From Arcuatula senhousia (lineage: Eukaryota; Mollusca; Bivalvia; Mytilida; Mytilidae): a stretch of 64,000 nucleotides of DNA. Position numbers and translations under genes: made by a program. The DNA is taken from NCBI GenBank assembly GCA_963971305.1, contig OZ020305.1:44155717-44219716 (forward strand). Direction: 5' to 3'. The notes below the pieces were generated by a model. That model had not been told where the DNA came from. It made no database searches and saw only the letters and a list, made by a program, of their open reading frames with translations. This document shows positions 15,564 through 63,657 of this stretch, piece after piece. How positions within the stretch are numbered: the first letter of the stretch is position 1; each line of letters opens with the position of its first letter.

Positions 15564-16015
15564 AAGTAACTTCAACTGATGAGTCTTGAATAGACAAAAC
15601 GCGCGTCAGGCGTAGCAAAAATTATTGTCTGGAATTTTGTTGTCATTTGTATTTCGAACACACGTGAAGGTTAGCACTGCTGGTGGAGTTTCAATTCCCC
15701 GAGGTTAGCCCGCTCCGGCATCAACACTTTTGTGTTGGAGAATACATCAAAGCTTTAAATTATCCGTTTAAATTTCAAAATTGTTTAAACCCTAAGGGTA
15801 TTCCTACTCCAGACATAGGTTGATCATCTTAGTATTAATTTGGTTCCCAAATTTGGTATGTTTGGTTTTACTGTTCTATGCTCTTCATAATCATATAATG
15901 TTTGGCTTTTTCAATATTTTTGTAGAGCGCCTCTGATGAGTCTTGAATAGACGAAACGCGCGTCAGGCGTAGCAAAAATTATTGTCTGGAATTTTGTTGT
16001 CATTTGTATTTCAAT
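15564..16015 (+). mobile_element. Retrozyme: 357-nt unit between two hammerhead motifs
   Basis: Predicted cleavage points after 15607 and 15964 define a unit of 357 nt. The upstream hammerhead (15575-15615) has AAAA in place of GAAA and no upstream stem I strand. The downstream one is complete. The body has GTGAAGGTTAGCACTGCTGG, a hairpin-like CTCCGGCATCAACACTTTTGTGTTGG and an ACTCCAGACATA segment also seen at 26045. There is no coding frame, as expected for non-autonomous retrozymes, which are known to spread as circular RNAs made from tandem copies. Confidence 0.8.
15912..15984 (+). ncRNA. Type I hammerhead ribozyme, complete
   Basis: Proximal stem I is GCGCCT (15927-15932) with AGGCGT (15965-15970). 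Core CTGATGA is 15933-15939. Stem II is GTCT (15940-15943) with AGAC (15949-15952) and a TGAAT loop. The GAAA box is 15953-15956. Stem III is the minimal ACGCGCGT (15956-15963). The cleavage triplet is GUC, with cut after 15964. Beyond an internal loop, CAATATTTTTG (15912-15922) pairs with CAAAAATTATTG (15973-15984) with one bulge, extending stem I as in natural fast-cleaving hammerheads. All invariant core bases are present. Confidence 0.88.
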
Positions 16016-34582: not shown

Positions 34583-35623
34583 ATGAATTCAACAGACTTT
34601 AACGTCTCGTTTTCAACAACAACTGAGGAGATGCAAACGACGAGCGAAAATGCCCTTCTTATGAAAATATACCAAGACCACATCCCCATAGTATTGTTCA
34701 TACCCAAGGCTAAAGTTCTACTTTACGTGTTTGGATTTCCTGCAAATGCATTGTCTTGTTTTCTTTGGCTGCGGTCGCCGTTACGTCATTCATCTGGATG
34801 TTACTTTGCGGCATTGGCGGTATCTGATGACTTGTTTCTTTTGTTGTCTGTAATCTACGAGTTACAGAATAACTGGGACACAAATACATTACAATTTCCG
34901 ATTATATGCGAGATGTTTCCAGTGTTTTATCTTGCGGTCCAGTATTTATCCCCCCTCTTGACTCTTGCATTTACGGTAGAGAGGTACATATCAATTAGAT
35001 TCCCTCTGAAACGGAGACAGTTTTGCACAGTGAGAAGAGCAAAACTGGTTATTTTATGTATGACAATACTTGTTTTTATGTTGTCGTCGATACAAGGATA
35101 TTTTTGGAGTTTTGCAGGAACATGTCTTATAAGAGAAGAAGCAGGTGATTTACGTATCAACTGGAACTGGGTCACGGAGTCAACAATGTTCATTATAGTC
35201 CCATTTGTGATTCTGATATTTAATATAATGGTCATCTATACCATGCAGAACACCAAGAAACGTGTCAAGAAGTTATATGGCCCAATCCCGCCGAGGAAGA
35301 GATCAGCCAATACAAGAACGCTTCTCTTTGTATCTTTTGTTCTCATCATTACGACACTTCCGGTTAGTTTGACCTACATATTATCAGATCATTTTGTGTA
35401 CCCATTTCGATGCTTAGACCTGGATTACGATTGTATACAAAATGATTCGGAATGGCAAAGGCATTTACGATTTCATGTTGTAAGAGAGATTGTGTATCTT
35501 TTGGGGATAACTCATTACGCTTTTAATTTCATCATATATCTGACGACAGGAAAAAGATTCCGACGAGAACTCAAAAGAATTTTTGAACGAAAGATATTTC
35601 AATGTTCACATAACGAAGAGTAG
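34583..35623 (+). CDS. Rhodopsin-class (class A) G protein-coupled receptor, peptide-receptor-like
   Basis: 346 residues in one coding exon; a plasma-membrane receptor expected to signal through heterotrimeric G proteins. Visible landmarks: N-glycosylation sites N2 and N7 in a short extracellular tail; TM1 about 43-63 with GFPAN; TM2 73-94 with LAVSDD; Cys109 at the top of TM3, a likely disulphide partner of Cys181 in the second extracellular loop; ERY at 133-135 (DRY variant); TM4 153-172; TM5 197-220 with Pro207; TM6 244-267 with Pro260 but no CWxP tryptophan; TM7 297-321 ending NFIIY (315-319) in place of NPxxY; basic helix 8 (GKRFRRELKRIF). This pattern is common in lineage-expanded lophotrochozoan FMRFamide/TRH-receptor-like GPCRs. 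The ligand cannot be read from sequence. The ATG directly follows a splice acceptor, and AATAAA lies 68 bases after the stop. Confidence 0.9.
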   Translation: MNSTDFNVSFSTTTEEMQTTSENALLMKIYQDHIPIVLFIPKAKVLLYVFGFPANALSCFLWLRSPLRHSSGCYFAALAVSDDLFLLLSVIYELQNNWDTNTLQFPIICEMFPVFYLAVQYLSPLLTLAFTVERYISIRFPLKRRQFCTVRRAKLVILCMTILVFMLSSIQGYFWSFAGTCLIREEAGDLRINWNWVTESTMFIIVPFVILIFNIMVIYTMQNTKKRVKKLYGPIPPRKRSANTRTLLFVSFVLIITTLPVSLTYILSDHFVYPFRCLDLDYDCIQNDSEWQRHLRFHVVREIVYLLGITHYAFNFIIYLTTGKRFRRELKRIFERKIFQCSHNEE

Positions 35624-43040: not shown

Positions 43041-43590
43041 TCAAACTAGGAATTTTGTTGTTTTGGGTTATAACTCTACATTCTTTTCCAAAACATCGTT
43101 CAAAGATAAGATTTGTTACACACTGGAACAAGTTTGCAGAATGCTTGATTTCCTCATTGACATATATTTGTCACTTCGGAGGAGATATTTTTCAACAACA
43201 ATCGGCATTCCAATGGGCACAAATTGTGCTCCTCTCCTCGCCGATTTGATTTTATACTCTTACGAGACTGAATTTCTCCAGGGACATTTAATCTTACATT
43301 CAGATATATTGATGATGTCCTTTCTGTCAATAAAACTTCATTTGGTAGATGGATTCCTTCAATATATCCTCCAGAATTGGAGATTAAAGAGACCACAGAA
43401 TCAAATTGCTTCACGTCTTTCTTGGATTTGCACCTCGAATTTGACCCAGGTGGTCATCTCAGTACAAAAAGTTACGATAAAAGAGACGATTTTAATTTTC
43501 AAATTATTATTTTTTCTTATCTACAGAGCAATATACCTACTTCCCCTGCATACGGTGTTTATATTTCACAACTTATTCGATATGGCAGAG
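43041..43590 (+). pseudogene. Penelope-like RT, older copy truncated at its 3' side
   Basis: GIPMGTNCAPLLADLILYSYETEFLQ lies in one frame; after a shift, NLTFRYIDDVLS and PPELEIKETTESNCFTSFLDLHLEFDPGGHLSTKSYDKRDDFNF...AYGVYISQLIRYGRAS. It stops abruptly at LIRYGRAS, where a second RT copy begins. Confidence 0.85.
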
Positions 43591-44307
43591 CTTCCAGGGA
43601 TTCCAATGGGCACTAATTGTGCACCTTTGCTTGCTGATTTGTTTTTTCATTCATATGAAGCAGACTTCTTACAATCTCTAATAGACAAAAACGACCGTAG
43701 ACTAGCTCTCTCTTTCAACCTCACGTTCCGTTATATTGATGATGTCCTTTCACTAAACAATTCTCGATTTGGTGACTTTCTCCATCTCATATATCCCCAT
43801 GAGCTTGAGATAAAGGACACAACGGATTCTAGGAAGTCTGCTTCATATTTAGATCTACATCTCGAAATTAACTCTCAAGGAAGACTTTCAACAAGGCTCT
43901 ATGACAAGCGTGATGACTTCAACTTTCCAATCGTCAACTTTCCCTTTTTGTGTAGCAACATTCCGTCCGCTCTAGCTTATGGAGTTTACGTATCTCAATT
44001 GATTCGTTACTCCAGAGCGTGCGGGACTTACATCAATTTCCTTAGCAGAGCGACACGTCTGACGCAAAAATTGCTCACACAGGGTTATGTTGCTCCTCGG
44101 TTGCTGTCTTCACTCAAGAAATTTTACGGAAGACATCATGCACTCATAGACAAATATGGGATTGCTATCTCAGAGATGAGTGCAGATGTTGGTTTTGGTT
44201 TGTCTTCCTTTACCGGATTTGACACGCCGAATGGACTATTGGCAACGCGAAGGGTGTGCTATAGCAAGCAGGAACTGCTTACTCTTCCGGAGCACCTGAG
44301 CGACTGA
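43591..44307 (+). pseudogene. Penelope-like reverse transcriptase, best-preserved copy (5'-truncated)
   Basis: An open stretch of about 235 codons starts at GIPMGTNCAPLLADLFFHSYEADFLQ and runs through RYIDD (catalytic aspartates), YLDLHLEINS, RLYDKRDDFNF, YGVYVSQLIRYSRACGTYINFLSRATRLTQKLL and GRHHALIDKYGIAISEMSADVGFG to a stop after PEHLSD. Fingers-domain motifs before GIPMGT are missing, so it is not a complete enzyme. It is joined in frame by chance to the frameshifted older copy, creating a spurious 414-codon frame from 43063. Confidence 0.88.
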
Positions 44308-48180: not shown

Positions 48181-48345
48181 CAGGCCTGGGGTCAATAACA
48201 ATGCAATGTAATGCATTACATTACCATTACTTTACAAATTTTGTCATTACATTACATTACCATTACTTTTTTTCTCTTCTGTAATGCATTACATTACCAT
48301 TACTTTGCTTTTGTAATGCATGTCATTACGCATTACATTTTGATT
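48181..48345 (+). repeat. Left terminal region of the giant element
   Basis: The tip CAGGCCTGGGGT is followed by repeated GTAATGCATTACATTACCATTAC modules separated by T-rich DNA. The right end has the same kind of modules inverted. Confidence 0.8.
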
Positions 48346-49164
48346 AAATATCTATAGGTAAATCTTTTTGTACTTCTTATAAGTCATCTGCAGAAAACAC
48401 TATTTTTTTGTTCTGTATACAATTATGTTTTGAATTTTTTTTTCACATCTAATGTGGTATGTATGGTATTTACATAAATATGAATCAGTGAAAAATTCAT
48501 ACAAATTCATATCACAATCCCTTGCGGAGATATATGGATTTGAAATTACAAAGAATATTTATCAGCAATCCTGTGAGTTTGTACTATCAGTTGTACAAAT
48601 GGTCAAAATCTGTAAACCAACAGAAATGAGGCTAACTTATTCAAGTTTTTTGTAGAAATGTCACAAATGACCATATATTGATTGCATGAAATAATACTAT
48701 AGATTTGGTTTGTTTTTATTATTTTAATTTTAAAATCTTTTTGAATAAATCATAAAATAGTGTTTTCTTCAAGACCACTATAGACAGGCATGTCATTTCA
48801 TTTATATTTAAAGATTAAATCCTTTGGTCTTTTGTCCTTTCATTAAATTTGGCCCCAATTAATGAATATAAATAATTGTTATAAAAACAAATTAGTACAA
48901 TAAAAATGCCATTGTTATGCCTGGAGACACCTTAATTGGAAACATCAAAAAGGTGATTTCAAATGAAGCTTCTTAAGGATTTTTTTTTTATTTTAGTCTC
49001 TCTTTTCTTACATTACTATAGACATACACAGTTTCATGTTGCTAAGTACACCCTTTGCATAATTTCTTTTTTTTTCAAATAAAAGTACATATAAATAAAT
49101 AAATATTTAATATTATTGGATTAAGGGTTGATTGACAACTTTCTGTTTTAAATCATATAATATT

Positions 49165-49234
49165 CACAGTGTATAACCGGACAGTGGCCGATCACGGAAG
49201 TTGCCCACTGTCCGATGCTAAAATCTTAGTTGAT
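49165..49234 (+). repeat. Subterminal inverted repeat, left copy
   Basis: 70 bp, identical at 69 positions to the inverse of 63325-63394. It contains a hairpin CGGACAGTGG...CCACTGTCCG with a 17-nt loop. Further TGTCCGA motifs occur at about 49601 and 49645. A likely transposase or replication binding site. Confidence 0.9.
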
Positions 49235-49812
49235 AGTCATTATTTTACATTTTTTGTGCGTTTTTTTGACTGAAAACAAACATTACGGTAGCGGATTATG
49301 ACATTGGTAAGATGTTCATTTACTTAAGTCAATTACGTAACCATGAAACGTTCTTTATCTTATTAAGACTAATTAAAACTGTTTAAAATCTCTGATTAAT
49401 CATCAATGAGTGAACATTTTTTTTTCAACTCCGAGTAAAAATGTGAAATATACTCACAAACTCAGGTGAGTTCAGTAAAGTTCGTGTCATCAATAAAAGG
49501 AACATTCATTGGGCTTACTACAGTTAAAAAGGTTTGTAAAAAATAATATTATTTCTTGTTAAAAAACATCTTTTTTGTGAGATTGGTATAATTGTTTACT
49601 GTCCGAATAATTGCTCTAATCTTTTTTATGAGTGTCCGATTAATTGATTGATTTGAATCATTTATATGCATGTTTGATATTAATTAGGAACATTGTTTTT
49701 TCATCCTTACCATCTTTTAAAATATACATAAGTAGTGTTATTAACTTATATCATATATTTAAGTAATTATGCAGTCTTTTTGAATATGTATTACATGTAT
49801 TATAAGACATTT

Positions 49813-49941
49813 CATGGCAAAATCTGTATCGACTGCGGTATTAACCCTCGACCTATATCATACACAGGGTCGTTGGCCTTCGGTATGATACTAAGTAGGT
49901 GTCTCGGGTAAATACAGCATGTGATAACGATTTTGCCATGT
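49813..49941. mobile_element. Small foldback, about 129 bp
   Basis: CATGGCAAAATC at the left is mirrored by GATTTTGCCATG at the right, with inner GACCCTCGACC.../GGGTCG symmetry. Non-coding, nested in the giant element. Confidence 0.65.
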
Positions 49942-49979
49942 ATTATTCAGTATGAAATGTTACCTATGGGGCTATACAA

Positions 49980-50110
49980 AACAGCGACATTTAAGAATAG
50001 CCAAAATAATAACAGTGACATTTTGTTTTTCCGAAACAGCGACATTATTAATTGGGTCTTCTTAAAATCGAGTTAAAATCGTGCATAAAAAAGCGACATT
50101 AGATTTAATG
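49980..50110 (+). repeat. Scattered GCGACATT motif cluster
   Basis: AACAGCGACATT-like words occur four times in about 120 bp with irregular spacing, close to the left subterminal region. Confidence 0.5.
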
Positions 50111-50189
50111 CCAAACATTGAATGTACTGTCGCTTTCTACAGCTGACTTTGAATTTTTTTAATGGTCAAAAGTTGATTTTTCAAAACAG

Positions 50190-50466
50190 ATTTCTCAGCT
50201 ACTATTTTTGGTAGGCTTTTGATAATTGGTATGGAGCTTTTAGTAGAGGTCTCATATGGTGGGATAAGTTTCCAGGTCTGGCGCTTTTCTACTTCTTGAT
50301 TAACGAGCTGAATTAGAAATTTTTAATTGTCAAAAATGGAAAATTTTGGTAACCGATTTCCCAGCTACTATTAATGGTGGACTGTTGATATTCGGTATGT
50401 AGCTTCAGGTAGAGGTCTTAAATGGCGGGATCCGTTACCAGGTCTGTCGCTTTTCAACTTCTTGTA
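50190..50466 (+). repeat. Diverged tandem repeat, two units of about 174 bp
   Basis: TTTCTCAGCTACTATT...GGTAGAGGTCT.A.ATGG.GGGAT...CCAGGTCTG.CGCTTTTC.ACTTCTTG occurs twice (about 50190 and 50364). Confidence 0.8.
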
Positions 50467-50662
50467 TAGCAAATGCACTTAAAATTTTTGCCACTCGGTG
50501 TGGACCCAGGAATTCCGTTCTTGTTTTTTTTTTTTTTTGCTGTTAAAAAAATATTGTCACTATTTTGATGCATGCTTGTCTTTTTGAAAAAAGCAAAAAT
50601 ATCCGTTACTAAGTGTTTTTTTCATAAGGTTGTCTTGTCACAAAAATATTACCAATTTCCTG

Positions 50663-50684
50663 TTGTTATTTTTTGCTTGTTTAG
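50663..50684 (+). promoter_or_regulatory. Predicted 3' splice site before the zinc-finger gene
   Basis: TGTTATTTTTTGCTTGTTTAG ends 12 bases before the ATG at 50697, implying an upstream non-coding exon. Confidence 0.55.
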
Positions 50685-50696
50685 GGTTAGAAAAAA

Positions 50697-51329
50697 ATGG
50701 ACGAACTAGAAATTGTTCCAAGTGTGGAGGAAATATCGACATCTTATGCGTGCATCCATTGTCCCTTTTCTAGCAAATGGAAAAGTAACCTTATCCGGCA
50801 TCAATTAATGCATAATAAAGCAGCAACTAAAACAAATGCTAATGCATTTACAGCCACGGGAAACGAAAAAGAGTTTGTGTGTGATCAGTGTGGAAAAAGC
50901 TTCAGAAGTCGTTATGGAATGAATGTCCATAATAAAATCAAGCATCTAAACAAATTCCGGTTCTCCTGTGCAGTGTGTAAGAGGGGATTCCATCATCTAT
51001 GGAACTTCAAAGGACATTTGGCATCACATCACAAACAACTAGAAGAAAAATGTCAAGTGTGTGGGGCAACTTTCAGGTTCAAGGCATCCCTGCTTGTTCA
51101 TGCTAGACAGTGTAAAAAGCAAGCCGACTCTAACAACAACCCAACCACTGCTTTATATAAATGTCATACATGTGATGCTACATTTCAGATTAGAAAAAAC
51201 CTCTCGGATCACATCCAAGGGCAGCACGGAGGACGTGTTTATAGGTGTGAGAAATGTGGAAAATCGTTTAAGTGGAGAAGTTCTCTTTCTTATCACAACC
51301 GATTTGTTAAACATTGTGACAGTTTTTAA
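50697..51329 (+). CDS. Six-finger C2H2 zinc-finger protein
   Basis: 210 residues, intact, one coding exon behind a predicted splice acceptor. Fingers by zinc ligands: C19/C22/H35/H39; C62/C65/H78/H83; C91/C94/H107/H111; C119/C122/H135/C139 (a CCHC variant); C156/C159/H172/H177; C184/C187/H200/H206. Several fingers have the usual aromatic and leucine core (CGKSF...L..H), but TGEKP linkers are absent, so the fingers are not a canonical KRAB-type array. Expected nuclear DNA- or RNA-binding. There is no KRAB, BTB, SCAN or transposase domain. It lies inside the giant inverted-repeat element, convergent with the transposase-like gene, so it may be element-encoded (a terminus-binding factor) or a captured host gene. 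Confidence 0.9.
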   Translation: MDELEIVPSVEEISTSYACIHCPFSSKWKSNLIRHQLMHNKAATKTNANAFTATGNEKEFVCDQCGKSFRSRYGMNVHNKIKHLNKFRFSCAVCKRGFHHLWNFKGHLASHHKQLEEKCQVCGATFRFKASLLVHARQCKKQADSNNNPTTALYKCHTCDATFQIRKNLSDHIQGQHGGRVYRCEKCGKSFKWRSSLSYHNRFVKHCDSF

Positions 51330-51536
51330 CTTTTGAACAATTAATTGGTGATTCTTGAAGACGCCTTTATTTTATAGTGCACTTTTTATGTTATTTTTTT
51401 TTATTTCAAATGTTGTCAAATGAATTGATTGTTTTAACTTTTGAACAATTAATTGGTGATTCTTGAAGACGCCTTTATTTTATAGTGCACTTTTTATGTT
51501 ATTTTTTTATTTCAAATGTTGTCAAATGAATTGATT
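51330..51536 (+). repeat. Tandem duplication in the 3'UTR of the zinc-finger gene
   Basis: About 104 bp beginning TTTTAACTTTTGAACAATTAATTGG and ending CAAATGAATTGATT is repeated head to tail, differing only in poly-T length. The first copy overlaps the stop codon region. Confidence 0.93.
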
Positions 51537-51544
51537 CTCATCAC

Positions 51545-51580
51545 AATAAATTTAAGTTACAGTTTCATAGTGTCAATAAA
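51545..51580 (+). terminator. Poly(A) signals of the zinc-finger gene
   Basis: AATAAA at 51545-51550 and 51575-51580, about 215-250 bases after the stop. Confidence 0.55.
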
Positions 51581-51654
51581 ACTATTAAATAATTTAAGAA
51601 AGGATATGGAGTAAATGAACATGAGACCACAACACATATGTTTACTCCAACTGC

Positions 51655-51760
51655 AATTAATTTTTATGAGCTGTATGGCCATTTCGGAAAATTATTCCTC
51701 ATCAGCAGCACTAGAACCCAAACAAAGGAAATCCACAATTCAAAAGATGTTCGAGTTTAA
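51655..51760 (-). repeat. Fragment of the 7020/7827 ribozyme repeat
   Basis: Minus-strand CATCTTTTGAATTGTGGATTTCCTTTGTTTGGGTTCTAGTGCTGCTGATGAGG matches 7128-7178 closely. Confidence 0.8.
51668..51711 (-). ncRNA. Hammerhead ribozyme, family B, intact core
   Basis: On the minus strand: stem I GCTG (51709-51706) with CAGC (51673-51670); CTGATGA at 51705-51699; stem II GGAA/TTCC with a 5-nt loop TAATT; GAAA at 51685-51682; minimal stem III ATGGCCAT; cleavage triplet AUA. The stem II loop differs from the copy at 7165 (CACTT), yet core and stems are unchanged. It lies downstream of, and antisense to, the zinc-finger gene. Confidence 0.65.
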
Positions 51761-52152
51761 GTTTTGAAAAATGCAGTTTAATCATTTATTCCACACTGCA
51801 TATTCATCAGAAGTAAAACTCACAGTAAGAAGGGGGAGGCAATGCGTTGATTACCACAGGTTGAAGTATGTTTTCTATAAAGAAAGTATGAAATCATAAT
51901 GAAACTTATATAAATACATGTATACTATTTTAAAGATATCTGGATATGTACATACAAAGGTCAAATTATCCAAAAAAGAAAAAAAAAAGAAATCTGATAT
52001 ACAAGACATCATGTATTTCTAGTGCTGAAAATAAACTGAACTTGATATTACCACCACACCCCGTACATAAAAACCAACAAACAAACAAAACAAAACACAA
52101 AAAAATAAAAACAAACAAATCAAACAAGAACAAAAACAACCCAGTAGTCCTT
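51761..52152. other. Spacer inside the giant element
   Basis: A-rich low-complexity tract at 51970-52140; the overlapping Lys/Asn-rich frames are compositional. Confidence 0.45.
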
Positions 52153-53048
52153 ATATTCTCTCTAAAAAAGTTACGCATAGGGAGAAAATTCCCCCTACAT
52201 CTACACAATTTTAAAAGAACATTTCTGAGCCGTTCTGTAACCGATTTTCATGAAATAAAATCCTGTAAAAAGAAAACAAAATTAAAGTTTGTTTTTGCCT
52301 ACAAAAACGATGTCTTCCCCTGTTTCCCCAAAAAGTTCTAAGTTCAAAGGGCCATTACTCCCACAAAAAAAATTGAAGATCAAAATTTCCTGGTCATATG
52401 CACAACTACATATGGTGTCCTTCCTATAAACCAAGTTTCATTGAATTCAGTTTAGTAGTTTTAGAGGAGTTGCACTGACAAGATAATAAATGAGGATTTT
52501 CAGCAAATTTCTAAGTTCAAAGGGCCATAACTCCCACAATAATTTGAGGATCAAAATTTCCTGGTAACATGCACAACTGCATTTGGTGTCCTTCCTATAT
52601 ACCAAGTTTCATTGAATTCGGTTCAGTAGTTTCAGAGGAGTTGCGCTGACAAACTTTGTGACGGACAGACGGACGGACGGACACGACAAAACGTTTGATC
52701 CATTTGGACCAAAATTCCAACTTCAATCGTTTTTTAAGACCTCCACCAATGTTTTTTCACGGAAAATTTTGCTTTGAGTTAAACGGGAAGTTGATGTGTA
52801 AAATGTTACGTATACTTGAGTTCTACTTGCAGTAGCATAAAAAAGCGAAGCTACGATTTTGCTCATAACTTAACAAATAAGCTTCATTTATTTTTATTTT
52901 TATTGTTTTTTTTTTTGTTTTTTTTGTTTTTTTTTCATGAAAATCGAATAAAAGACGACTTAGTAGAGTTGTTTTGAAATGGTTTGGGTTTGAATTAAAC
53001 ATATAGGGAATTTTCTAACTAGACGTAACTTTTTTTGAAGAGAATATG
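52153..53048. mobile_element. MITE family M, copy 2, interrupted
   Basis: The left end ATATTCTCTCTAAAAAAGTTACGCA and the right end ACGTAACTTTTTTTGAAGAGAATAT form the same inverted repeat as at 3675-4166. The inner phrase TTTTTTCACGGAAAATTTTG...GTTAAACGGGAAGTTGATG corresponds to 3894-3940. It is split by the tandem repeat at 52336-52690. Confidence 0.75.
52336..52690 (+). repeat. 173-bp tandem repeat plus GACG microsatellite
   Basis: TTCTAAGTTCAAAGGGCCAT...CAAAATTTCCTGGT...CCAAGTTTCATTGAATTC...AGAGGAGTTGC.CTGACAA occurs twice (52336, 52509), then GACGGACAGACGGACGGACGGAC. Core repeats followed by a microsatellite recall the pearl-like architecture, but with different sequence. Confidence 0.85.
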
Positions 53049-53230
53049 TTCAAACAAGTACAACCAAGCAAATATATATATTTATTATTACGTGAAAGTT
53101 TAACAGCAGCGTCAAGAATTCTTTCTTGCCAATTGCAACGTTTCAATGGGCTTTATTGTCACCACCTTCCTTTTTTTAAATAAAACAGTATCTTCCAGTT
53201 CTCTGCGAAATGGTGCGATGCGCATGAACA

Positions 53231-54002
53231 TAAGGGACGGACCATTTTACCTTAAGGGGGGGGCTTGGTTTCTTGTTTTGGTCAGAAAATTTTTTTCCGC
53301 GCAGAGGCGTCGCGACAGAATTTTTTTTTTTATAATTATATATAATTCATTTACATGTTGAATCATTTTGTTCTTATAAATGTACCACTTTTTATAAGAA
53401 CCATGCAAAAAGCGATTCATGGGTAGAAAGCCTACACCACTTTATTTTTGATATGTTACTCCTACTAGCACCCTGATTCGATATTTTGTACTCTTTTTTC
53501 AAACAAGCGTTGGTCCTGAGAGAAAAAAAATATATAGAATGCATTAGAAAATTGTAAGAAAGGGAGATAACTCTGAAAACTGTCGATAATTTCAATAGAA
53601 ACCATTGTAACAAAATGGCAAGATTTCTCCCAGGACCAGACAGTTATGAGCAAATTGTTATTTATTTCTTATTTTGTATACTTTGAACTATCTTTTGTTA
53701 AAAATAAACCACTGTAGCCTTTTTATCGATGAATCACTTTTCTTCAATTTTGCATGATTCTTAGGTGGAGTACTACTTAAATATATATGCTTTATGTTTG
53801 TCATTTTTCATTTGTATTTGCTGAACCCGTCAGGGTTTTATGTTTTGCAAATAAACTTATTATCATCATTATTTTATATGGCAGGGGTCCTTCTTCAGAA
53901 TATTTTTTTTTTCTTACCCTCTGCTGCCTCAAAAATAATTTTCAGAATACTTTTTATGAAAAAACCAAGCCCCCCCCATTCAATTTAAATGGTCGGTCCC
54001 TA
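53231..54002. mobile_element. Foldback element with TAGGGACCGACC-type ends
   Basis: TAAGGGACGGACCATTTTACCTTAAGGGGGGGCTTGG at the left is mirrored by CCAAGCCCCCCCCATTCAATTTAAATGGTCGGTCCCTA at the right. Non-coding. A decayed end is also seen at 11355. Confidence 0.75.
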
Positions 54003-54731
54003 AACATTTTACAACATGAGCACAACATAGTGGAACAGCTGGTCTATCAAACATATGTTAAAGTACAACAAAGTAATAAAAAAATGATAAGGCATGTTGA
54101 GATGCTTTTGCACAAATAAGATACTGAATGAGACTAGAAGCTTGGTGTGATGAAGTGTACGCGACACCACCTACAAACTTATATGAATTTAACAACAAAT
54201 ATAAAACAATACCCACAGCGGAAAGCATCCAACCTAGGAATTTTAATGCTTGAGGTACTAGGTGCTTATAAACCTTTTCATTGCTTGTATATATGTTGAC
54301 AATTTTTACATTCACTCAGGCGAAAAGTAAAATTGTTGGACTGCAATATAAATATGAAGTTTCATTATATGTTATGAAGTTCGCCATTTACTTTCTCAAG
54401 TATTCGGTGTACTCAACCTATGAAACTGACTGCACTATTTAACCATTGTGTTTTACAATAGTCTGTTTACTAGTATATGAAACCCTTTCACAGTACCACC
54501 CATCGACAAAAACATATATGATATGACAAAAATTAACAGGAAGGAAATTTTCACCAAAAGCCAAAACAACACACACACTAATTATCTCAATGCAATATTC
54601 TATGAACAAATACTACTGAGTATGTGCAAAGAAAGAAATATTATGATTGCTATTCATATTATAAACAATGATAAATGGCAATGTTATATTATGCTGATGT
54701 ACGGTCAATCTATTAGCTCTTTTTAAGTAGT
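54003..54731. other. 3' flank of the transposase-like gene
   Basis: Contains a weak family B trace (GTGTACGCGACACCACC at 54157-54173). No gene seen. Confidence 0.4.
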
Positions 54732-57700
54732 CTAATCAAGTAGATCAATTCCGAGTCTTTTGTGAGGCAGAATCTTTTCTTCGTCGCATCTATGATGTTG
54801 CCGTATAGGCTTTATACCTCTGCAAGGTGCACCATACTTTGTAATTGTCGACCTCTTACGCTTGTGACGGGTGGATCTGTCATGTGAATCAAACAAATGA
54901 TCGATTGGTTCAATGTAATCTATAGATATAGGATTAAGAAAATGTGACTTATTTTCTACATTATGTTGATTTAAAAGTTGATGTGCGGGGTAAACTTTAG
55001 CTTTGCTGGTTTGCATAAAGAATGATTTTTGTGCATTCATGCGCACGGACAAAAGTTCACAGGCAGTGCTTATTGCACATGGTATATCATCCGGTCTCAG
55101 CACTCCTACGCCTTTCGGGTCTAAGTCTTGAAATTCTCCGAACAAGTTTTCTGCTTCAAGGCTTCCAAGGGCTCTAACATTATAGGCATTACCTTTAATG
55201 TATGGAAAAAGCTGGATGCGACGGTCTATGTTTGTCAGCAAACCTTCAAACATAATAAGTGGAATTCCATTAACATGCGATCCAGGTGGGGGAAATCTGT
55301 TGAAATTCACGTTATCCAACAACCATTCTCGTAGGTTTACTCTGTATCGACAACGATCTAATGCGCTTATCCCTGGACGATCCTCAGCATCATACCACTC
55401 TCTTATTAATCTGCAAAATTTGGCTTCATTGTTAAATCCACTTTTCAACATCTCATCTTCAACTTCTATTGAAAACGTTGCGTGTGCGAATGAATCACTC
55501 TGTCTATCAACAAGATCTTCCACGTGAGCTACTCCTAAACTAGTCCTCCCACTCTTAGCAACGGTCAACCATGCCTCTTGTTGGATTCCTTTTTGTTTTA
55601 TTCCCGTTGTGCAACATTTTATTCTTGCATTTGTAAAAAGATGGTGGGGGTCGAGCAAATGAAATACTGTCTGAAATCGATCAGCAATATAGTCTGGCTT
55701 ACAGTACCAATTTATACTACATAGCTCCATTACGTCACAATTATTTTTGAACAAATTTGATCCATTCCATTCTTCTAGTCTTTTAGGAAATATATGTTCT
55801 GCATAAACTGCATTGAGAACACTTTTGGGTAGGTTTGAGATGACATTTTGGCATAGTTTTGAAAGAGATTTTACAGTGTGGTGTAACTTGGACTTTGTTT
55901 GCCGTTTGGTTTTCTCAATCCATACTTGTTTACCAACGATTCTATAAAACAGCTCCACTATTTTATACTTTGGCCATGACAATGCAAACATGACTCCACA
56001 TCCTTTTAACTTTTGGGCAACAGCTTTGAGACATGTTTGAATTTCTTTCTTTCGTAGTGAACCTTTCAAAAGTTCCTGTGATGTAAACATTTTCAAAAAC
56101 TCTTCTATGTCACAATTCTTCCAACGGTCATTGTAGTTTTGTTTTAAATCTTCCAACATGGCTACAAAATCTGTTCCAGAGAGAGTCACAAGTAACGTGT
56201 CAGAGTCGGAGTTCGTTGTTTCTACCGTTTCTTCAACAACGTTTGTCGGAAGGTTAATTACATTTTGATATTCTCTTTGATCTTCCGGAGACTCCGTGGG
56301 ATCTTGGTTTTCTTCTTCCTGATCTTTCCTATGTTCAACATCATCTTGGTCTTCTGCTTTATATAAAATGTCCAAGTTAAAGTCTTGTGTGTTCCTTGTC
56401 ATACGATCATGTGTTTTAATTTGCAATTCTTTTGAACATTGCAGTTCATCCAGGGCATCTACTACATTCTCTGGTAGTGTATCCAGCACACAGCAAACTG
56501 TTTCTTCTGATAAATTATCTAATCTCATTTCTGTTTGTTCTTTGAGCTTTAATGAAGAATTATTTCTGATATAATCCTCCATATGTTTTGATGGAGAATA
56601 ACATTCATTCGTTTTTGCTGTTATGTGTCCAATTTGTATCGGACCAATGAAGAATCCATGTTCGTTTTTTCTAAACGAAATTTCCACAGCTTGTGCCAAA
56701 GAACTCAAATCATTCACCTTAAGCACATTTCCATTGTTCATTGTTTTAAGAATACTGCTTTTAGACTCTTTCTTTGCTTCAGTGAATACATCTTTTTGCA
56801 GCTGCAATAATGTAAGCGGGTTTCCTTGGCTATCTCTGATGGCAATATTATTCCACTGGCCATCAAACGAAACAATAGGAATATACAATCCTCTTTCAAA
56901 GCACTCTTTCAACACTTGCTCTATCATTTTTCTCATGCTATTGGAGTTCATGCTGTAACCCTTTAAACCATATGCTATTGGCATCGCGTATGGGATATCC
57001 GGATTATTAATCCTGTCTGTGTTTGCAAGTAGGAATACTACAACTTCTGTTGCTTTTCTTCTGGTTAAGTTGTAAGCGAATTGCAAACAGGAGATTGACT
57101 TATGTACCATACTTTGAAATGCATTTGAACATATTTCTGTTAATCTAGAACATGGACTCATGGTATGACTGCCGAATAAATAGGTGGAAGGATCATCAAT
57201 GTTGTGGTTACATTTTTTGGCTTTTGTAGACATAACCTCACACAGAAACTCAACATTTGTATTAACAAATTCCTTAATATTCTGCCGTACGTACTTAATA
57301 TCCGGATGAATCCGTTTGGGACACTTCATTTGATCAACTGGATATATGTTGCGCGCCGTATTTATCAACATTTCCATCAGATTCCTGTCATTTGTAACTT
57401 TCAAAACCGTTGTCGATTGTTCAGTATAACTTACAAATAACAGAGTTTCTACATTGAGTACATTCATCTCGCATAGCACTTGTGGGACATAATATACAGG
57501 TAATGTGTACAAACACGGGGTTGTGTATTCCTTACCAGGATACGGGCATTTGATTTCAACTCCCATTCTAGCCATTGGCCTCTGAGTTTGGTATCGGGGT
57601 GATCCACATACATCTTCATCTTCTATATTGTTTTCTCGTAGACTTCCATCTGGGCTAATTATACAAGGCTGCATTCCATCAACAGACAGTGCATAACAAC

Positions 57701-59510
57701 CTTCTTCGAAAAACAATAAATCGGGGAAGTACGTAGGCAAAACTTTTGAAACGAGTGTAGCAACCGCGTTTAACTCGTTTTCAGTTCCGTGTTTCAAACG
57801 TTTCTGGGTCTCGGCACTGTGTTCCTCCTGCTCTTTTTTCATATAGTTTTCAAAATGCTGTTTCTGTTTTTTTAATCCATCAAGACCAAGAGCTCTGAAA
57901 AATGTACTTCCAGTTATAATTGATTTTTCTCTGATACAAAACCACGCTTTGCTTTTTTGCTGTATCGATGACAAAATTTCATTTGCAGGAAACGAATCTG
58001 TAACCTGAAGTTCTTTTATACCTTGAAGGCAAACGAAGTTAGCCTGCTGAGACAAATCCACTAACGCGAAAGAATTCAAGAACGTATCGACTTGGCTTAA
58101 GGCTGAACAACAGCAGCACATATCGTCAATAACCCTCAAAATATCCATAATCGTCGAGTCAATCTCATATATTTTTGATCTTATTGCACTTATTGCAAAC
58201 CCGAGTTTTGAGACTTTCCAATCGCCAATCACCTGAGATTTGAGTTTTTCTAAAGTCACATTCTGACCGACTTTCATTGTACGTAAGTCGTGAAGCCGTT
58301 TCGACAATACTGAAATGCACTGCTGGATACTGGAAACAATTTCTGGAAACGTATGGGTCGGTAAATCGTTGAGAAATAAAAGTTCTCGTTGAAAAAGTAG
58401 CTCTCCATAACTGTGTAATTGTTCTAACACTTTTAAATTGTCTTCAAGTTCCTCTTGTCTGTCGCATAATGTAGGTGAGGTTTCGTAGCCCCATAGATTA
58501 ACATCCCCTAGTTTTTGATCCTTTACTCCAGCGTTTATTTTCTTTCCATCGACGCACAATTTATATGTACTTTGTTTATTTGGATCTGCTAAACTTATCT
58601 GGTCAATCATATCCGTTAAAATTCCCGGTGCAGATGCATTAACCGGCGATTCCATTGCATCCAGAATTTGCCTGCTTGGCACAGCAAAGTTTATTTGTGA
58701 GTCAGATGGGTCACACTTTCCAGCATCACACGTCGAGTCCAAGATATGTCCTCTATTTTTAAACCCACTCATAAACCTTAAGTATTTACCTTTAAATAGC
58801 TTCAATCCTACTCTCCAAAATCGTTTGACATCTTCAGAGTAACGCATTTGTGATGAATTGTCGTTTGAATACCAGTTGACAATGTCCATGAATAGCTTAA
58901 AGCCAATATTTGTCAAAGGAAATTTACCCTCTGCGACTAACCTGCAGAACTTTAAGAGATTGTAATGTTGATCAACATTCTCCAATTGTGATATAACTTT
59001 CGGAAGAAGTTGCTGAAATTCATCGAAAAGACAATCATTATCATTTTTTTCTGAACAAGACAGATCCGAAAAGTCACATGATAAGTTCAGATCAATTTCA
59101 ATATCACCGTCTGGCTTGGTTTCATCAACATGCATTTTGGTATCGTTTCCCCTTCTAACAGGAGTTGATATTCTGAGTTTTTGTTTTTTGCTAAGCGGAC
59201 TCCGCATCTCAAATTCATCACTAATGTTGCTGAGCAAACAGTCTGTTTTGCCTATTTTAATTGTTTCTTTGTCATTTTCGCTGTGAATATAATACCCTTC
59301 TGACAATAACTGTGAAGGCACAATACCGAAATTCTTTGTAATCAGTTGGTTTGCTTTTGATACAAATGTTTTGATCTTAAGCTCAGATTTCGGATGTTGA
59401 ATCACATGGTGGTCAATTGTTTCAGAAAACACAGAACATTGGAATTTACAGACAACGCAGAAATATCTACTAGAACTGTTCATTTCTAAAATGAAAAATA
59501 AAACATGCAT
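54732..59510 (-). CDS. Giant transposase-like protein with embedded YqaJ nuclease domain
   Basis: 1592 codons from the ATG at 59510, uninterrupted. A splice acceptor at 59486-59505 makes Met10 (59483) the more likely start; numbering here uses 59510. A C2H2-like finger is at 18-39. D321 lies in LCVDGKK. Residues about 520-700 are a YqaJ/lambda-exonuclease fold: W523...REKSIITGS, GTENE (577-579), SPDG with D621, and E652-I-K654. Then come ATEVVVFLL (about 820), IVSFDGQW with D883, an acidic linker (about 1050-1085), LLDPHHLFTNAR with D1287, SLEAENLFGEF with E1452, and a basic tail. The D321...D1287...E1452 set and their surroundings resemble P-element/THAP9 RNase-H-fold transposases (first D in a DG strand, DPxH at the second, an E in an ENxFG helix). 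Expected role: cut and join the element's ends, with the nuclease trimming or processing DNA. Superfamily is inferred from motifs only. Confidence 0.8.
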   Translation of the reverse strand: MHVLFFILEMNSSSRYFCVVCKFQCSVFSETIDHHVIQHPKSELKIKTFVSKANQLITKNFGIVPSQLLSEGYYIHSENDKETIKIGKTDCLLSNISDEFEMRSPLSKKQKLRISTPVRRGNDTKMHVDETKPDGDIEIDLNLSCDFSDLSCSEKNDNDCLFDEFQQLLPKVISQLENVDQHYNLLKFCRLVAEGKFPLTNIGFKLFMDIVNWYSNDNSSQMRYSEDVKRFWRVGLKLFKGKYLRFMSGFKNRGHILDSTCDAGKCDPSDSQINFAVPSRQILDAMESPVNASAPGILTDMIDQISLADPNKQSTYKLCVDGKKINAGVKDQKLGDVNLWGYETSPTLCDRQEELEDNLKVLEQLHSYGELLFQRELLFLNDLPTHTFPEIVSSIQQCISVLSKRLHDLRTMKVGQNVTLEKLKSQVIGDWKVSKLGFAISAIRSKIYEIDSTIMDILRVIDDMCCCCSALSQVDTFLNSFALVDLSQQANFVCLQGIKELQVTDSFPANEILSSIQQKSKAWFCIREKSIITGSTFFRALGLDGLKKQKQHFENYMKKEQEEHSAETQKRLKHGTENELNAVATLVSKVLPTYFPDLLFFEEGCYALSVDGMQPCIISPDGSLRENNIEDEDVCGSPRYQTQRPMARMGVEIKCPYPGKEYTTPCLYTLPVYYVPQVLCEMNVLNVETLLFVSYTEQSTTVLKVTNDRNLMEMLINTARNIYPVDQMKCPKRIHPDIKYVRQNIKEFVNTNVEFLCEVMSTKAKKCNHNIDDPSTYLFGSHTMSPCSRLTEICSNAFQSMVHKSISCLQFAYNLTRRKATEVVVFLLANTDRINNPDIPYAMPIAYGLKGYSMNSNSMRKMIEQVLKECFERGLYIPIVSFDGQWNNIAIRDSQGNPLTLLQLQKDVFTEAKKESKSSILKTMNNGNVLKVNDLSSLAQAVEISFRKNEHGFFIGPIQIGHITAKTNECYSPSKHMEDYIRNNSSLKLKEQTEMRLDNLSEETVCCVLDTLPENVVDALDELQCSKELQIKTHDRMTRNTQDFNLDILYKAEDQDDVEHRKDQEEENQDPTESPEDQREYQNVINLPTNVVEETVETTNSDSDTLLVTLSGTDFVAMLEDLKQNYNDRWKNCDIEEFLKMFTSQELLKGSLRKKEIQTCLKAVAQKLKGCGVMFALSWPKYKIVELFYRIVGKQVWIEKTKRQTKSKLHHTVKSLSKLCQNVISNLPKSVLNAVYAEHIFPKRLEEWNGSNLFKNNCDVMELCSINWYCKPDYIADRFQTVFHLLDPHHLFTNARIKCCTTGIKQKGIQQEAWLTVAKSGRTSLGVAHVEDLVDRQSDSFAHATFSIEVEDEMLKSGFNNEAKFCRLIREWYDAEDRPGISALDRCRYRVNLREWLLDNVNFNRFPPPGSHVNGIPLIMFEGLLTNIDRRIQLFPYIKGNAYNVRALGSLEAENLFGEFQDLDPKGVGVLRPDDIPCAISTACELLSVRMNAQKSFFMQTSKAKVYPAHQLLNQHNVENKSHFLNPISIDYIEPIDHLFDSHDRSTRHKRKRSTITKYGAPCRGIKPIRQHHRCDEEKILPHKRLGIDLLD
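59486..59505 (-). promoter_or_regulatory. Predicted 3' splice site before the transposase-like gene
   Basis: The minus strand reads TTTTATTTTTCATTTTAG then AAATGAAC, placing an acceptor two bases before Met10. The same layout (acceptor just before the start) is seen at the zinc-finger gene. Confidence 0.55.
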
Positions 59511-59789
59511 GTCATCATTATATTAATTTTATTTTAAAAACAGTCCCTCAAATCTCATGGAAATGTAAAAGAAGACATAAGATTTAGAATCTATGAGGTT
59601 TTTTGCATCAGTCGATAAATGCTTCTTAGATAGCTGTCAGTAACTGCGAGTGTTCTTTTGAGAGAATTCCTCTACGTCTCATTGTTCTTGTATATAGTGA
59701 TCTTGTCTCAAGTTCTCTCTTGGTGAATTGAAATTTTATCGGTGTGTCATTTTTGTGCTTTATACAGTTTTGTCAATAGGGGGAATGTT

Positions 59790-60082
59790 GGGTCAAAAAC
59801 TAGTTAACACATTTTACATGTGCCTGTCCTAAGCCAGGAATCTTTGTCAAAGCTTTTGTTTGTCTTTGTCATGATTTCTATCTGTTTATTGTTCCTTTTG
59901 TTGATAATTAATTGATAGGATTTGAATCTTATGTGTTGTATTTTTAGTCTTTGCCCAATGCAAGACGGCGAGCAGCGACCTCTGATCATGTTGAAGACTG
60001 CTTGCTGTTTTCTGTTGCGATTTTATTTTTAAATTGCCGTATCTGTATGTTGGCTGTGTCACGTACACTTATTCCATAAAAG
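59790..60082 (+). repeat. Family B repeat nested in the giant element
   Basis: AAAACTAGTTAACAC, CCTGTCCTAAGCCAGGAATC, ACGGCGAGCAGCGACC and GGCTGTGTCACGTACACTTATTCC occur in the usual order, as at 29735-30090. Confidence 0.8.
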
Positions 60083-60351
60083 TTTTATAATAACGACGAG
60101 ATTACAATATACTCACGGATTGAGATTGCACGCAGTTCTTACTTGTTGAAGCTCAGGGTTTGTGATAGAAAAGACATTTAAGAGCCATTTAAGGATTAAC
60201 TATAAAATACAACTTTGTTCAGTCAATTTTCTTTTAAAAGATGATCCATGAATGATGAATATATATTTTATTTAAGCCGAAGAATCCCTATACCCCAGAC
60301 ATAATGTTTCCACTGTAACAAACAATCAAAGAGATTTAATCCAATTTGATA
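60083..60351. other. Spacer inside the giant element
   Basis: Nothing recognised. Confidence 0.4.
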
Positions 60352-61393
60352 AAACAAGACGATCCCAGGAGCCTGAATCTCTCACCTGGTCTTGATGTCA
60401 ACCCTATGAAGACCTTTTTTTATATATAGCTAAATAAGCTGAATGTTTAAGCAAGAAAAAGCTGTTCTCTATCTGCAATAGTTTTCATTCTAGATAAGCA
60501 AAAAAACACTATTATTCATTTTTTGGGGGCTGTAAATCCTATAAGGGGTCATCGGACAAGTTCGACCCTATGGAGACTGTTATAGAGCTTAATGAGCTGA
60601 ACATTTAAGCAAGCAACAGCTTTTCTCTATCTGTAATAGTTTTCATTCTATATGCCAAAAACACAATTTTTCGCCTTTAAGGGGCTATAACTCCTATAAG
60701 GGGCCATCTGACAAGTTTGACCTTTGGAGACTTTTGTAGAGCTAAATGAGCTGAACATTTAAGCAAACAACAGCTGTTCTCTATCTGCAATAGTTTTCAT
60801 TCTATAGGACAAAAACACTATTTTTCGCCTTTAAGGGACTGTAACCCCTATAAGGGGTCATCTGACAACTTCGACCTTATGGAGATTTTTTAGAGCATAA
60901 TGAGCTGAACATTTAAGCTAGCAACAGCTTTTCTCTATATACAATAGTTTTCATTCTATAGGGCAAAAACATAAAAAACCGCTATTTTTTACCTTTAAAG
61001 GGTCATAACCCCTATCAAGGGCCATCTGACAACTTCGACCCAATAGAGACTTTTGCATAGCTTTTGATTATGAAGAGCCTAATATTCTTCGGATTGTTCT
61101 ATCTGTTATGGTTGTTGAGTTAAAAGCAATTTTAAGTGATTTTACCCTATGTCTCTGTGTTCTATTTTTAGTAACAGCGGCCATGTTTTTTATTGAATAA
61201 TTTTAAAATGAGGATCGTTTGTTCCTAACATGTCATATATCATTCCTGCAAAGTTTCAGTTAAATTGGTTTAGTGCATGGTTTCAGAGAAGAAGATTTTT
61301 GAAATTGTTAACGGGCGACAGACGACGGCCGACGATGGACGCATAGTGATGGCATAAGCTCACCTTGCCTTTGGCCAAATGAGCTTTAAAAGT
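60352..61393 (+). mobile_element. Pearl-like element, copy C7, nested in the giant element
   Basis: The head GATCCCAGGAGCCTGAATCTCTCACCTGG, four to five core units of about 150 bp, the unique right region and the tail GGCATAAGCTCACCTTGCC...GAGCT. Diverged from C1/C5 and closest to C6 in its right region (TTGCCAACATGTCATATACCATT-like phrase). Confidence 0.85.
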
Positions 61394-61711
61394 GGGACAT
61401 CTTCCAACTTGAAGATAGATGAACGCATGATTTTCCATGTTTTATTATAGAGTATTTATATAAGGAGAACAGTTATAAAGTCTGGACACCTAAAAAGATA
61501 TCTAATACAAAATCTGCTGAAAATCTGAAGATGAAGCCTTTTTTACAGCTCTTTGAAATAATCAACAACAACAAAATCGAGTCGCCTTTAATTTGTTCCA
61601 AAACTTATTTATTCTATATAAAGAATTGTCTCCCTTTTTTTTTAGAATGGTGTTATCCCTTTAATTTAGTATGATGTCAATCATTATGTTATGTTTGCTA
61701 CTTATTTCATG
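61394..61711. other. Spacer inside the giant element
   Basis: Nothing recognised. Confidence 0.4.
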
Positions 61712-61932
61712 TGTGTGCAGTGTGTGTGTGTGTGTTGGTGTTTAACGCCCTTTATCGACGCACCTGGGCCATGTAGGACGGTCAGTTTGATTGGTGGAGG
61801 AAACCACCGACCTTTGGCAGGTAACTGACAATCTTAATCACATACATTTAGGGAAGTCCCTTTTTTGTGAAATACAGCTGAGAGAAGCTATTTAAACCAG
61901 CGCTTTAGACCACTCGGCCACCCAGCCCCCTA
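61712..61932 (-). mobile_element. tRNA-derived SINE
   Basis: The minus strand starts GGGGGCTGGGTGGCCGAGTGG then TCTAAAGCGCTGG, a clear tRNA-Leu/Ser-type 5' half with A box. It continues to GGTCGGTGGTTTCCTCCACC, a conserved SINE-body phrase, and ends in a (CA)n tail (on the plus strand, (GT)n at 61715-61736). Pol III-transcribed, non-autonomous. Confidence 0.8.
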
Positions 61933-63324
61933 TTTATCTTATAGAATATTTTATATGATATTATTGTTTGGTTCTATTTGGCAAGTCCAGCTGCAGTTCA
62001 AGAAGATGCCAACTGAAAATATAAGAGTACAACAGACCTGAAACTGGATGCCATACTTATGTACATACTAAATGAAAAAAAAATCCAAACTTGTAAACGG
62101 ATATTTTCCTCGAATGCCTGTCCAGCAGACAGCGGTCCTAGTTTCATTCACCACAGGTCATGCGAGATCAGGTCGAAAAATCTTTGATGGTGTTGCAGTC
62201 TTATAAGATATTTTTGTTCAAGCTTTGAGAGAAAATTGCATCATAAAACTAGGCAGAATTTTGATTGAAGTCTACAAATGTCTCCCAAATAACTCTTATT
62301 ATTATTCAAGTCATGAGCATGCCAAACAATACAGAATAAATATTTATTTTCATCTTTGGCAGATTCTTTAAAATTTCGACTAATGAAAACCATAATATTT
62401 TCTTAAGAGATAACTTTTTGAAATAGCATATTCAAGACCACCACCATTTTGGAAAATTATACCTCGAAAATTACATTTTCGTAAGTAAGAATAAAACAAA
62501 GATCGCTTTCACTTTTTTCTCATATCAAAATAGTCTTTTTTATCATGTGTACTCGTAATCAAATAGATTTATCACAAGAAAAATGCTTTTAGATACAACA
62601 TGCTTTTAAATACAACAGGTCATCAGGGGGACGTTCTCAGATCTAATATACAGCATATGTATTAAGGAAATTTTAATCAAATTGCGCCAGTCATGGCTTA
62701 AGTTTGAATAAATCATGGCCTTATTCCAACCCAACTTGACCGGAGCATGGTGGACCCTAAGCTGGGACCCTGATCACATTGTAAGAAGAAGGTTTAGTGT
62801 TATAAAAACTAGGTGTTTCCATATGATTTGATAGACAAATCAGTTATTAAAATGTATTTGTGAAGCGAAATTTGTTTTTATATCAGTCAATTAATCGGAC
62901 AGATACTATTTTTCTTCTGACAATTAATGATTACGTACAGTGACAAGTGATCGGACAGATTTTGAGTGACACCTGTTCATACAAATCGAATAAATATAAA
63001 CATTCTAAATAAATTGTATTAAATACGTATAGCCAAAATGATTCGGCAAACAAATGGCTTTAGCCTGGTATGTTATACATAATTGTGTTTTAAGTATTTT
63101 TTTGTTAAATGATGAATATGTTGATAAAAAACGGGTTTGCTCTGTCAAATTCGTAATGATTAAACCCAATTATTTACTACTTTGCATACATTAAACAAAA
63201 GTTGTCGTAATTTCTATAATTAAAAATAACATTATACAAATTATACAGCCTACCTTTTTTCAATGAAATCACTTTTAGCCATGTGAGGCGTCTAAATCAT
63301 AGTAAAATTGTTCATATTTCCAAA
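61933..63324. other. Right subterminal part of the giant element, no gene
   Basis: AT-rich. ATCGGACAGAT-type motifs at about 62894 and 62952 are inverse matches of the TGTCCGAT words on the left side. Confidence 0.55.
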
Positions 63325-63394
63325 ATCAACTAAGATTTTAGCGTCGGACAGTGGGCAACTTCCGTGATCGGCCACTGTCCGGTTATACACTGTG
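63325..63394 (-). repeat. Subterminal inverted repeat, right copy
   Basis: Inverse of 49165-49234 with one mismatch, including the CGGACAGTGG/CCACTGTCCG hairpin. Confidence 0.9.
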
Positions 63395-63480
63395 ATATTT
63401 TTTTTCAAAGACTTTTTTTTAAATTTTATTGTCATTCGAAAATTTTCCTTTTTTTTCAAGATGTACAAAATAAGAAAAAT

Positions 63481-63657
63481 ATAATGACATGTAATGCAAT
63501 GTAATGGGGGCATTACACAATTTTTTACCCAAGTAATGCATTACATTACATTACATGTAATGCAGAATTGGTGCATTACACAATACTTTGCATTACTGAA
63601 AAAAAATGTAATGATTACAATGCATTTGCATTACGCATTTGCATTACCCCAGGCCTG
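63481..63657 (-). repeat. Right terminal region of the giant element
   Basis: Modules of CATTACATTACATGTAATGC and GCATTACGCATTTGCATTACC lead to the tip ACCCCAGGCCTG and an (AT)n flank. Confidence 0.8.

What the first reader, a model, noticed from the sequence alone, without database searches (positions are those of the whole stretch)
48181..63657. A 15.5-kb inverted-repeat element that appears intact: candidate giant DNA transposon
The perfect 12-bp inverse tips, matching TAATGCATTAC-rich subtermini, a 70-bp inverted repeat with one mismatch and two uninterrupted genes define a unit far longer than ordinary cut-and-paste elements. Both tips sit in (AT)n, compatible with an 8-bp duplication of ATATATAT. 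The transposase-like frame has no stop in 1592 codons, so the element was active recently or is under constraint. Lineages this could belong to include P, hAT, KDZ/Zisupton or Academ relatives, or something unnamed; I cannot search.
Basis: partly seen in the sequence, partly recalled or inferred. Interest (0 to 1): 0.95.

Follow-up and report, generated by a model that had tools for sequence, protein, structure and literature searches.

The report
Transposon with exonuclease inside its transposase

Summary
The repeats and both genes are real, but the 15.5-kb unit is two nested elements. The outer CAGGCCTG ends belong to a small element: of 30 loci fetched from 102 right ends, 26 carry both flanks of the core without it, and 6 of 9 two-ended copies have perfect 8-bp duplications. 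The real element is 49165-63394, with 70-bp inverted repeats starting CACAGTG. Four copies with both ends were found: three have a perfect 5-bp duplication (ATATT, TCCAT, TTCTA), one 4 of 5. Two carry an uninterrupted transposase frame.

5-bp duplications and CACAGTG ends resemble RAG/Transib, not P (8 bp). It is filed under neither: a superfamily-level lineage of DDE transposons, apparently undescribed. That the nuclease steers repair after excision is inferred.

The parts
48181..49164 (+). left part of the outer small element (tip CAGGCCTGGGGT at 48181-48192, TAATG-rich subterminus to about 48340)
49160..49164 (+). 5-bp target duplication ATATT, left copy
49165..49234 (+). left 70-bp terminal inverted repeat of the large element, starts CACAGTG
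50697..51329 (+). gene for a 210-aa multi-finger C2H2 protein; open also in the C1146 copy
53383..53781 (.). about 400 bp present here but absent from the C12 and C1 copies (later insertion, 8-bp overlap at its edges)
54732..59510 (-). 1592-aa transposase: N-terminal C2H2 finger, split RNase H (D321, D883, E1454), D1287xxH1290 before an insertion domain
57321..57953 (-). aa 520-730 of the transposase: lambda-exonuclease/YqaJ nuclease between the first and second catalytic Asp
59599..61385 (.). stretches similar to repeats elsewhere in the window; most of this stretch (to about 61150) is also found in the C1146 and C12 copies, so it belongs to the element
63325..63394 (-). right 70-bp terminal inverted repeat of the large element
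63395..63399 (+). 5-bp target duplication ATATT, right copy
63395..63657 (+). right part of the outer small element (tip at 63646-63657)

Best explanation
49165-63394 is a DNA transposon of about 14 kb, moved by its own 1592-aa transposase, that inserted into a copy of a small CAGGCCTG-ended element and duplicated 5 bp (shown by four copies with both ends and an empty site). The transposase has a DDE RNase H core of P element type (shown by predicted fold and conserved residues; activity inferred) and, between its first and second catalytic Asp, a lambda-exonuclease/YqaJ nuclease (shown). Most likely step, inferred: after excision the nuclease resects the broken ends 5'->3', which sends repair to homology-directed copying and can restore the element at the donor site. 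The zinc-finger protein is a second element gene, inferred to bind the long terminal repeats or to regulate transposition.
Against: Nothing shows movement today. The nuclease role is inferred. Foldseek TM-scores to 6p5a are low (0.37 of the target), and active-site geometry and GTP contacts were not measured. A sequence profile did not find 6p5a in PDB. PF21787 is below its cut-off for the window protein (18.5 vs 24.6). P-type fold and RAG/Transib-type duplication do not agree with one known family. Ends of the two C13 copies and of 18 diverged loci were not found. The contig link is equal length, not a distance.
Confidence: 0.8

Rival explanations
1. The nuclease takes part in the cutting reaction itself (second-strand cleavage or trimming of staggered ends), not in repair.
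For: It lies inside the RNase H fold, so near the DNA ends; its residues are invariant where present.
Against: P element transposase, with the same core, needs no second nuclease (recalled); lambda-type enzymes act as exonucleases in recombination (established knowledge).
Confidence: 0.25
2. The whole 48181-63657 stretch is one element and the copies without the core are its internal deletions.
For: Outer ends in inverse orientation with similar subtermini; short copies share both outer parts.
Against: Deletion would have to stop at both 70-bp repeats; other copies of the core end at 49165/63394, have their own 5-bp duplications and no CAGGCCTG tip in the 5 end loci examined; the small copies have their own 8-bp duplications.
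Confidence: 0.02
3. A canonical P-superfamily element with an extra domain.
For: Fold, DDE order, [C/D](2)H motif, spacing from that motif to E (for DmTNP).
Against: 5-bp instead of 8-bp duplication, no THAP hit, CACAGTG ends.
Confidence: 0.12
4. A Transib/RAG-type element whose core has drifted towards P in the model.
For: 5-bp duplications and a CACAGTG tip, identical to the RSS heptamer consensus (PMC8289069 passages).
Confidence: 0.08

Closest known systems
P element superfamily (Drosophila P, zebrafish Pdre2/THAP9)
   Same: RNase H fold, D-D-E order, [C/D](2)H motif before an insertion domain (167 residues from D1287 to E1454; 192 from D339 to E531 in DmTNP)
   Different: 562 instead of 73 residues between the first two Asp, holding a nuclease; a long linker before D1287; C2H2 finger, no THAP hit; 5-bp duplication; 70-bp repeats; second gene
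Transib / RAG transposons (ProtoRAG)
   Same: 5-bp duplications, tips beginning CAC, here CACAGTG (passages)
   Different: Catalytic core closer to P, no RSS nonamer in the tip, inserted exonuclease, no RAG2-like gene seen
ISL2EU (PHIS, Harbinger-like)
   Same: DDE transposon that encodes a YqaJ exonuclease (PMC4482050 and PMC9179366 passages)
   Different: There YqaJ is a separate ORF, and the duplication is AT
KolobokP
   Same: Bivalve-rich DDE transposon with an added nuclease (PMC9587614 abstract)
   Different: Separate His-Me finger nuclease, long terminal direct repeats
Lambda exonuclease / LHK-Exo / viral YqaJ recombinases
   Same: Fold and D/E/K motif of the inserted domain
   Different: Free-standing phage or viral proteins

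Membership tests
P superfamily | P-type RNase H core with D, D, E on strand, strand end and helix | tested here: met
   geometry not measured
P superfamily | GTP-binding insertion domain between beta5 and alpha4 | tested here: inconclusive
   helical region aa 1288-1450 after D1287xxH1290; VIA range spans chain 200-565; GTP contacts not tested
P superfamily | 8-bp target site duplication | tested here: not met
   5 bp perfect in 3 of 4 copies, 4 of 5 in the fourth
P superfamily | N-terminal THAP domain (usual) | tested here: not met
   no THAP hit at E<=10 in the window protein; C-x2-C...H-x4-H finger instead
Transib / RAG | 5-bp target duplication and CAC tips | tested here: met
   comparison
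Transib / RAG | Transib/RAG1-type catalytic core | tested here: inconclusive
hAT (for the large element) | hAT-type transposase and 8-bp duplication | tested here: not met
hAT (for the outer small element) | 8-bp duplication | tested here: met
   6 of 9 perfect, 2 of 9 with one mismatch, 1 of 9 none; its transposase was not sought
ISL2EU / PHIS | YqaJ in a separate ORF beside a Harbinger-like transposase | tested here: not met
   YqaJ lies within the transposase frame
YqaJ / lambda exonuclease domain | PD-(D/E)XK core, D...ExK and Q | tested here: met

The most novel reading that the evidence does not exclude
A DDE transposon superfamily of its own that joins a P-type catalytic core to RAG/Transib-type ends (CACAGTG, 5-bp duplication) and carries a recombination exonuclease inside the catalytic domain, so that one polypeptide excises the element and resects the break, turning cut-and-paste into copy gain.
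Probability: 0.4. Interest if true: 0.88.

Novelty: new variant of a known kind. Interest (0 to 1): 0.8.

Why it matters
Copy gain of cut-and-paste transposons depends on donor repair, usually left to the host; here the enzyme may bring its own exonuclease, testable by point mutations. The mix of a P-type core with a 5-bp duplication and CACAGTG tips bears on how P, hAT and RAG/Transib transposases are related. It may also explain some 'YqaJ viral recombinase' genes in mollusc annotations (names), which one paper lists among endogenous viral elements (PMC7826175 passage). A curated bivalve library that used a P profile lists no P elements among its curated counts (PMC10294476 passages).

Tried and rejected
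I also first read the host-like repeats in 59599-61385 as later insertions; most of that stretch is shared by other copies.

Papers: searches. Searches listed only the first 20, 20 and 30 of 425, 15318 and 18551 papers. One search (YqaJ and transposase) listed 20 of 21; I saw passages of four of these and judged the rest by title and start of abstract. 'Not described' means not seen in these.

Full report
What the window shows. The tips, subterminal arrays, 71-bp arms and two frames are as described. The arms are far beyond chance, the 12-bp tips alone are not.

Two nested elements. The window is G000:C3:44155717-44219716 in a genome of 1036387356 bases. The right outer end occurs 102 times there, against 0 for the reversed control. 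I had 30 of these loci, one of them the window. In 26 of 30 both flanks of the core lie next to each other without the core; the others are L001, L002, L018 and the window's own L027. Nine loci have a second tip within about 1.5 kb (648-1496 bp): six have perfect 8-bp duplications in unlike targets (CTAAGAAG, ATTTTCAG, ATATCTTG, GTTGTGTA, GTTCATTA, CTTGGCGT), two differ by one base, one has none (L012). So the outer ends define a small element with 8-bp duplications, of hAT-like look (recalled), and the core sits inside one copy. L015, the copy most like the flanks, shows the site without the core.

The large element. The protein search in the host genome gave 36 matches, 29 of 730 candidates being scored. 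By my grouping these are 6 loci of the same family (88-99% identity) and 18 diverged loci (31-40%). Lengths are 14230 (window), 13852, 13989 and 15335 bp. Duplications are ATATT, TCCAT and TTCTA, and GTATT/ATATT for C1. All tips read CACAGTGTATAACCGGACAGTGG. The zinc-finger gene is open in C1146. Most of the repeat-like stretch 59599-61385 is in other copies too, so the 14-kb size is that of the mobile unit. The window alone, against C12 and C1, has about 400 extra bp at 53383-53781.

Activity. Window and C1146 have full frames of 1592 aa; they differ at 38 of 4776 nt, 19 synonymous and 18 other codons, which suggests constraint, on few changes. C12 has one stop, and C1 and both C13 copies have stops in part of their pieces.

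Spread. In a tree of 26 rows Mytilus proteins sit on three branches, two of them with Batillaria and Ruditapes; three long branches make deep forks unsure.

Second gene. 8 hits of 29 candidates; four near full-length (P0036-P0039, 191-212 aa, 40-51% identity), two are bird C2H2 proteins at weak E. P0038 and the transposase relative P0031 share a contig length of 573517.

Filing. P: core met; 8-bp duplication and THAP not met, so not filed as P. RAG/Transib: 5 bp and CAC tips met (PMC8289069 passages), core not supported, so not filed there. The mechanism of cutting follows from the DDE core; the repair role of the exonuclease is inferred from lambda-type enzymes (established knowledge) and from gap repair in P copy gain (recalled). 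ISL2EU, unrelated by transposase, keeps YqaJ in a separate gene, which suggests that such nucleases were taken up more than once.

Noticed in passing
window 53383-53781: About 400 bp absent from the C12 and C1 copies, with an 8-bp overlap at its edges in the alignments and an imperfect inverted repeat inside: probably a third, small element nested in the large one.
   Followed up: partly
L006, L007, L020, L021, L024, L025: Non-autonomous CAGGCCTG-ended element of about 0.65-1.5 kb with perfect 8-bp duplications, 102 right ends in the genome; its own transposase was not sought.
   Followed up: partly
G000:C4:49266007-49269855 (-) and 49421339-49425187 (+) (L047, L048): Two diverged transposase copies with the same score and span in opposite orientation 155 kb apart: perhaps an inverted duplication.
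   Followed up: no
window 15927-15970 (+): Type I hammerhead ribozyme above the gathering score (36.5 vs 34).
   Followed up: no
window 34583-35623 (+): 346-aa rhodopsin-family GPCR frame (PF00001, E 3.7e-17).
   Followed up: partly
window 43063-44307 (+): 414-aa frame with a weak reverse transcriptase match, below cut-off.
   Followed up: partly
window 51324-51400 and 51432-51508: Perfect 77-bp direct repeat starting at the end of the zinc-finger gene.
   Followed up: no
transposase aa 1454-1475: EF-hand-like stretch after the catalytic Glu; EF-hand matches in 4 of 35 members at E<=5, best 0.027.
   Followed up: no
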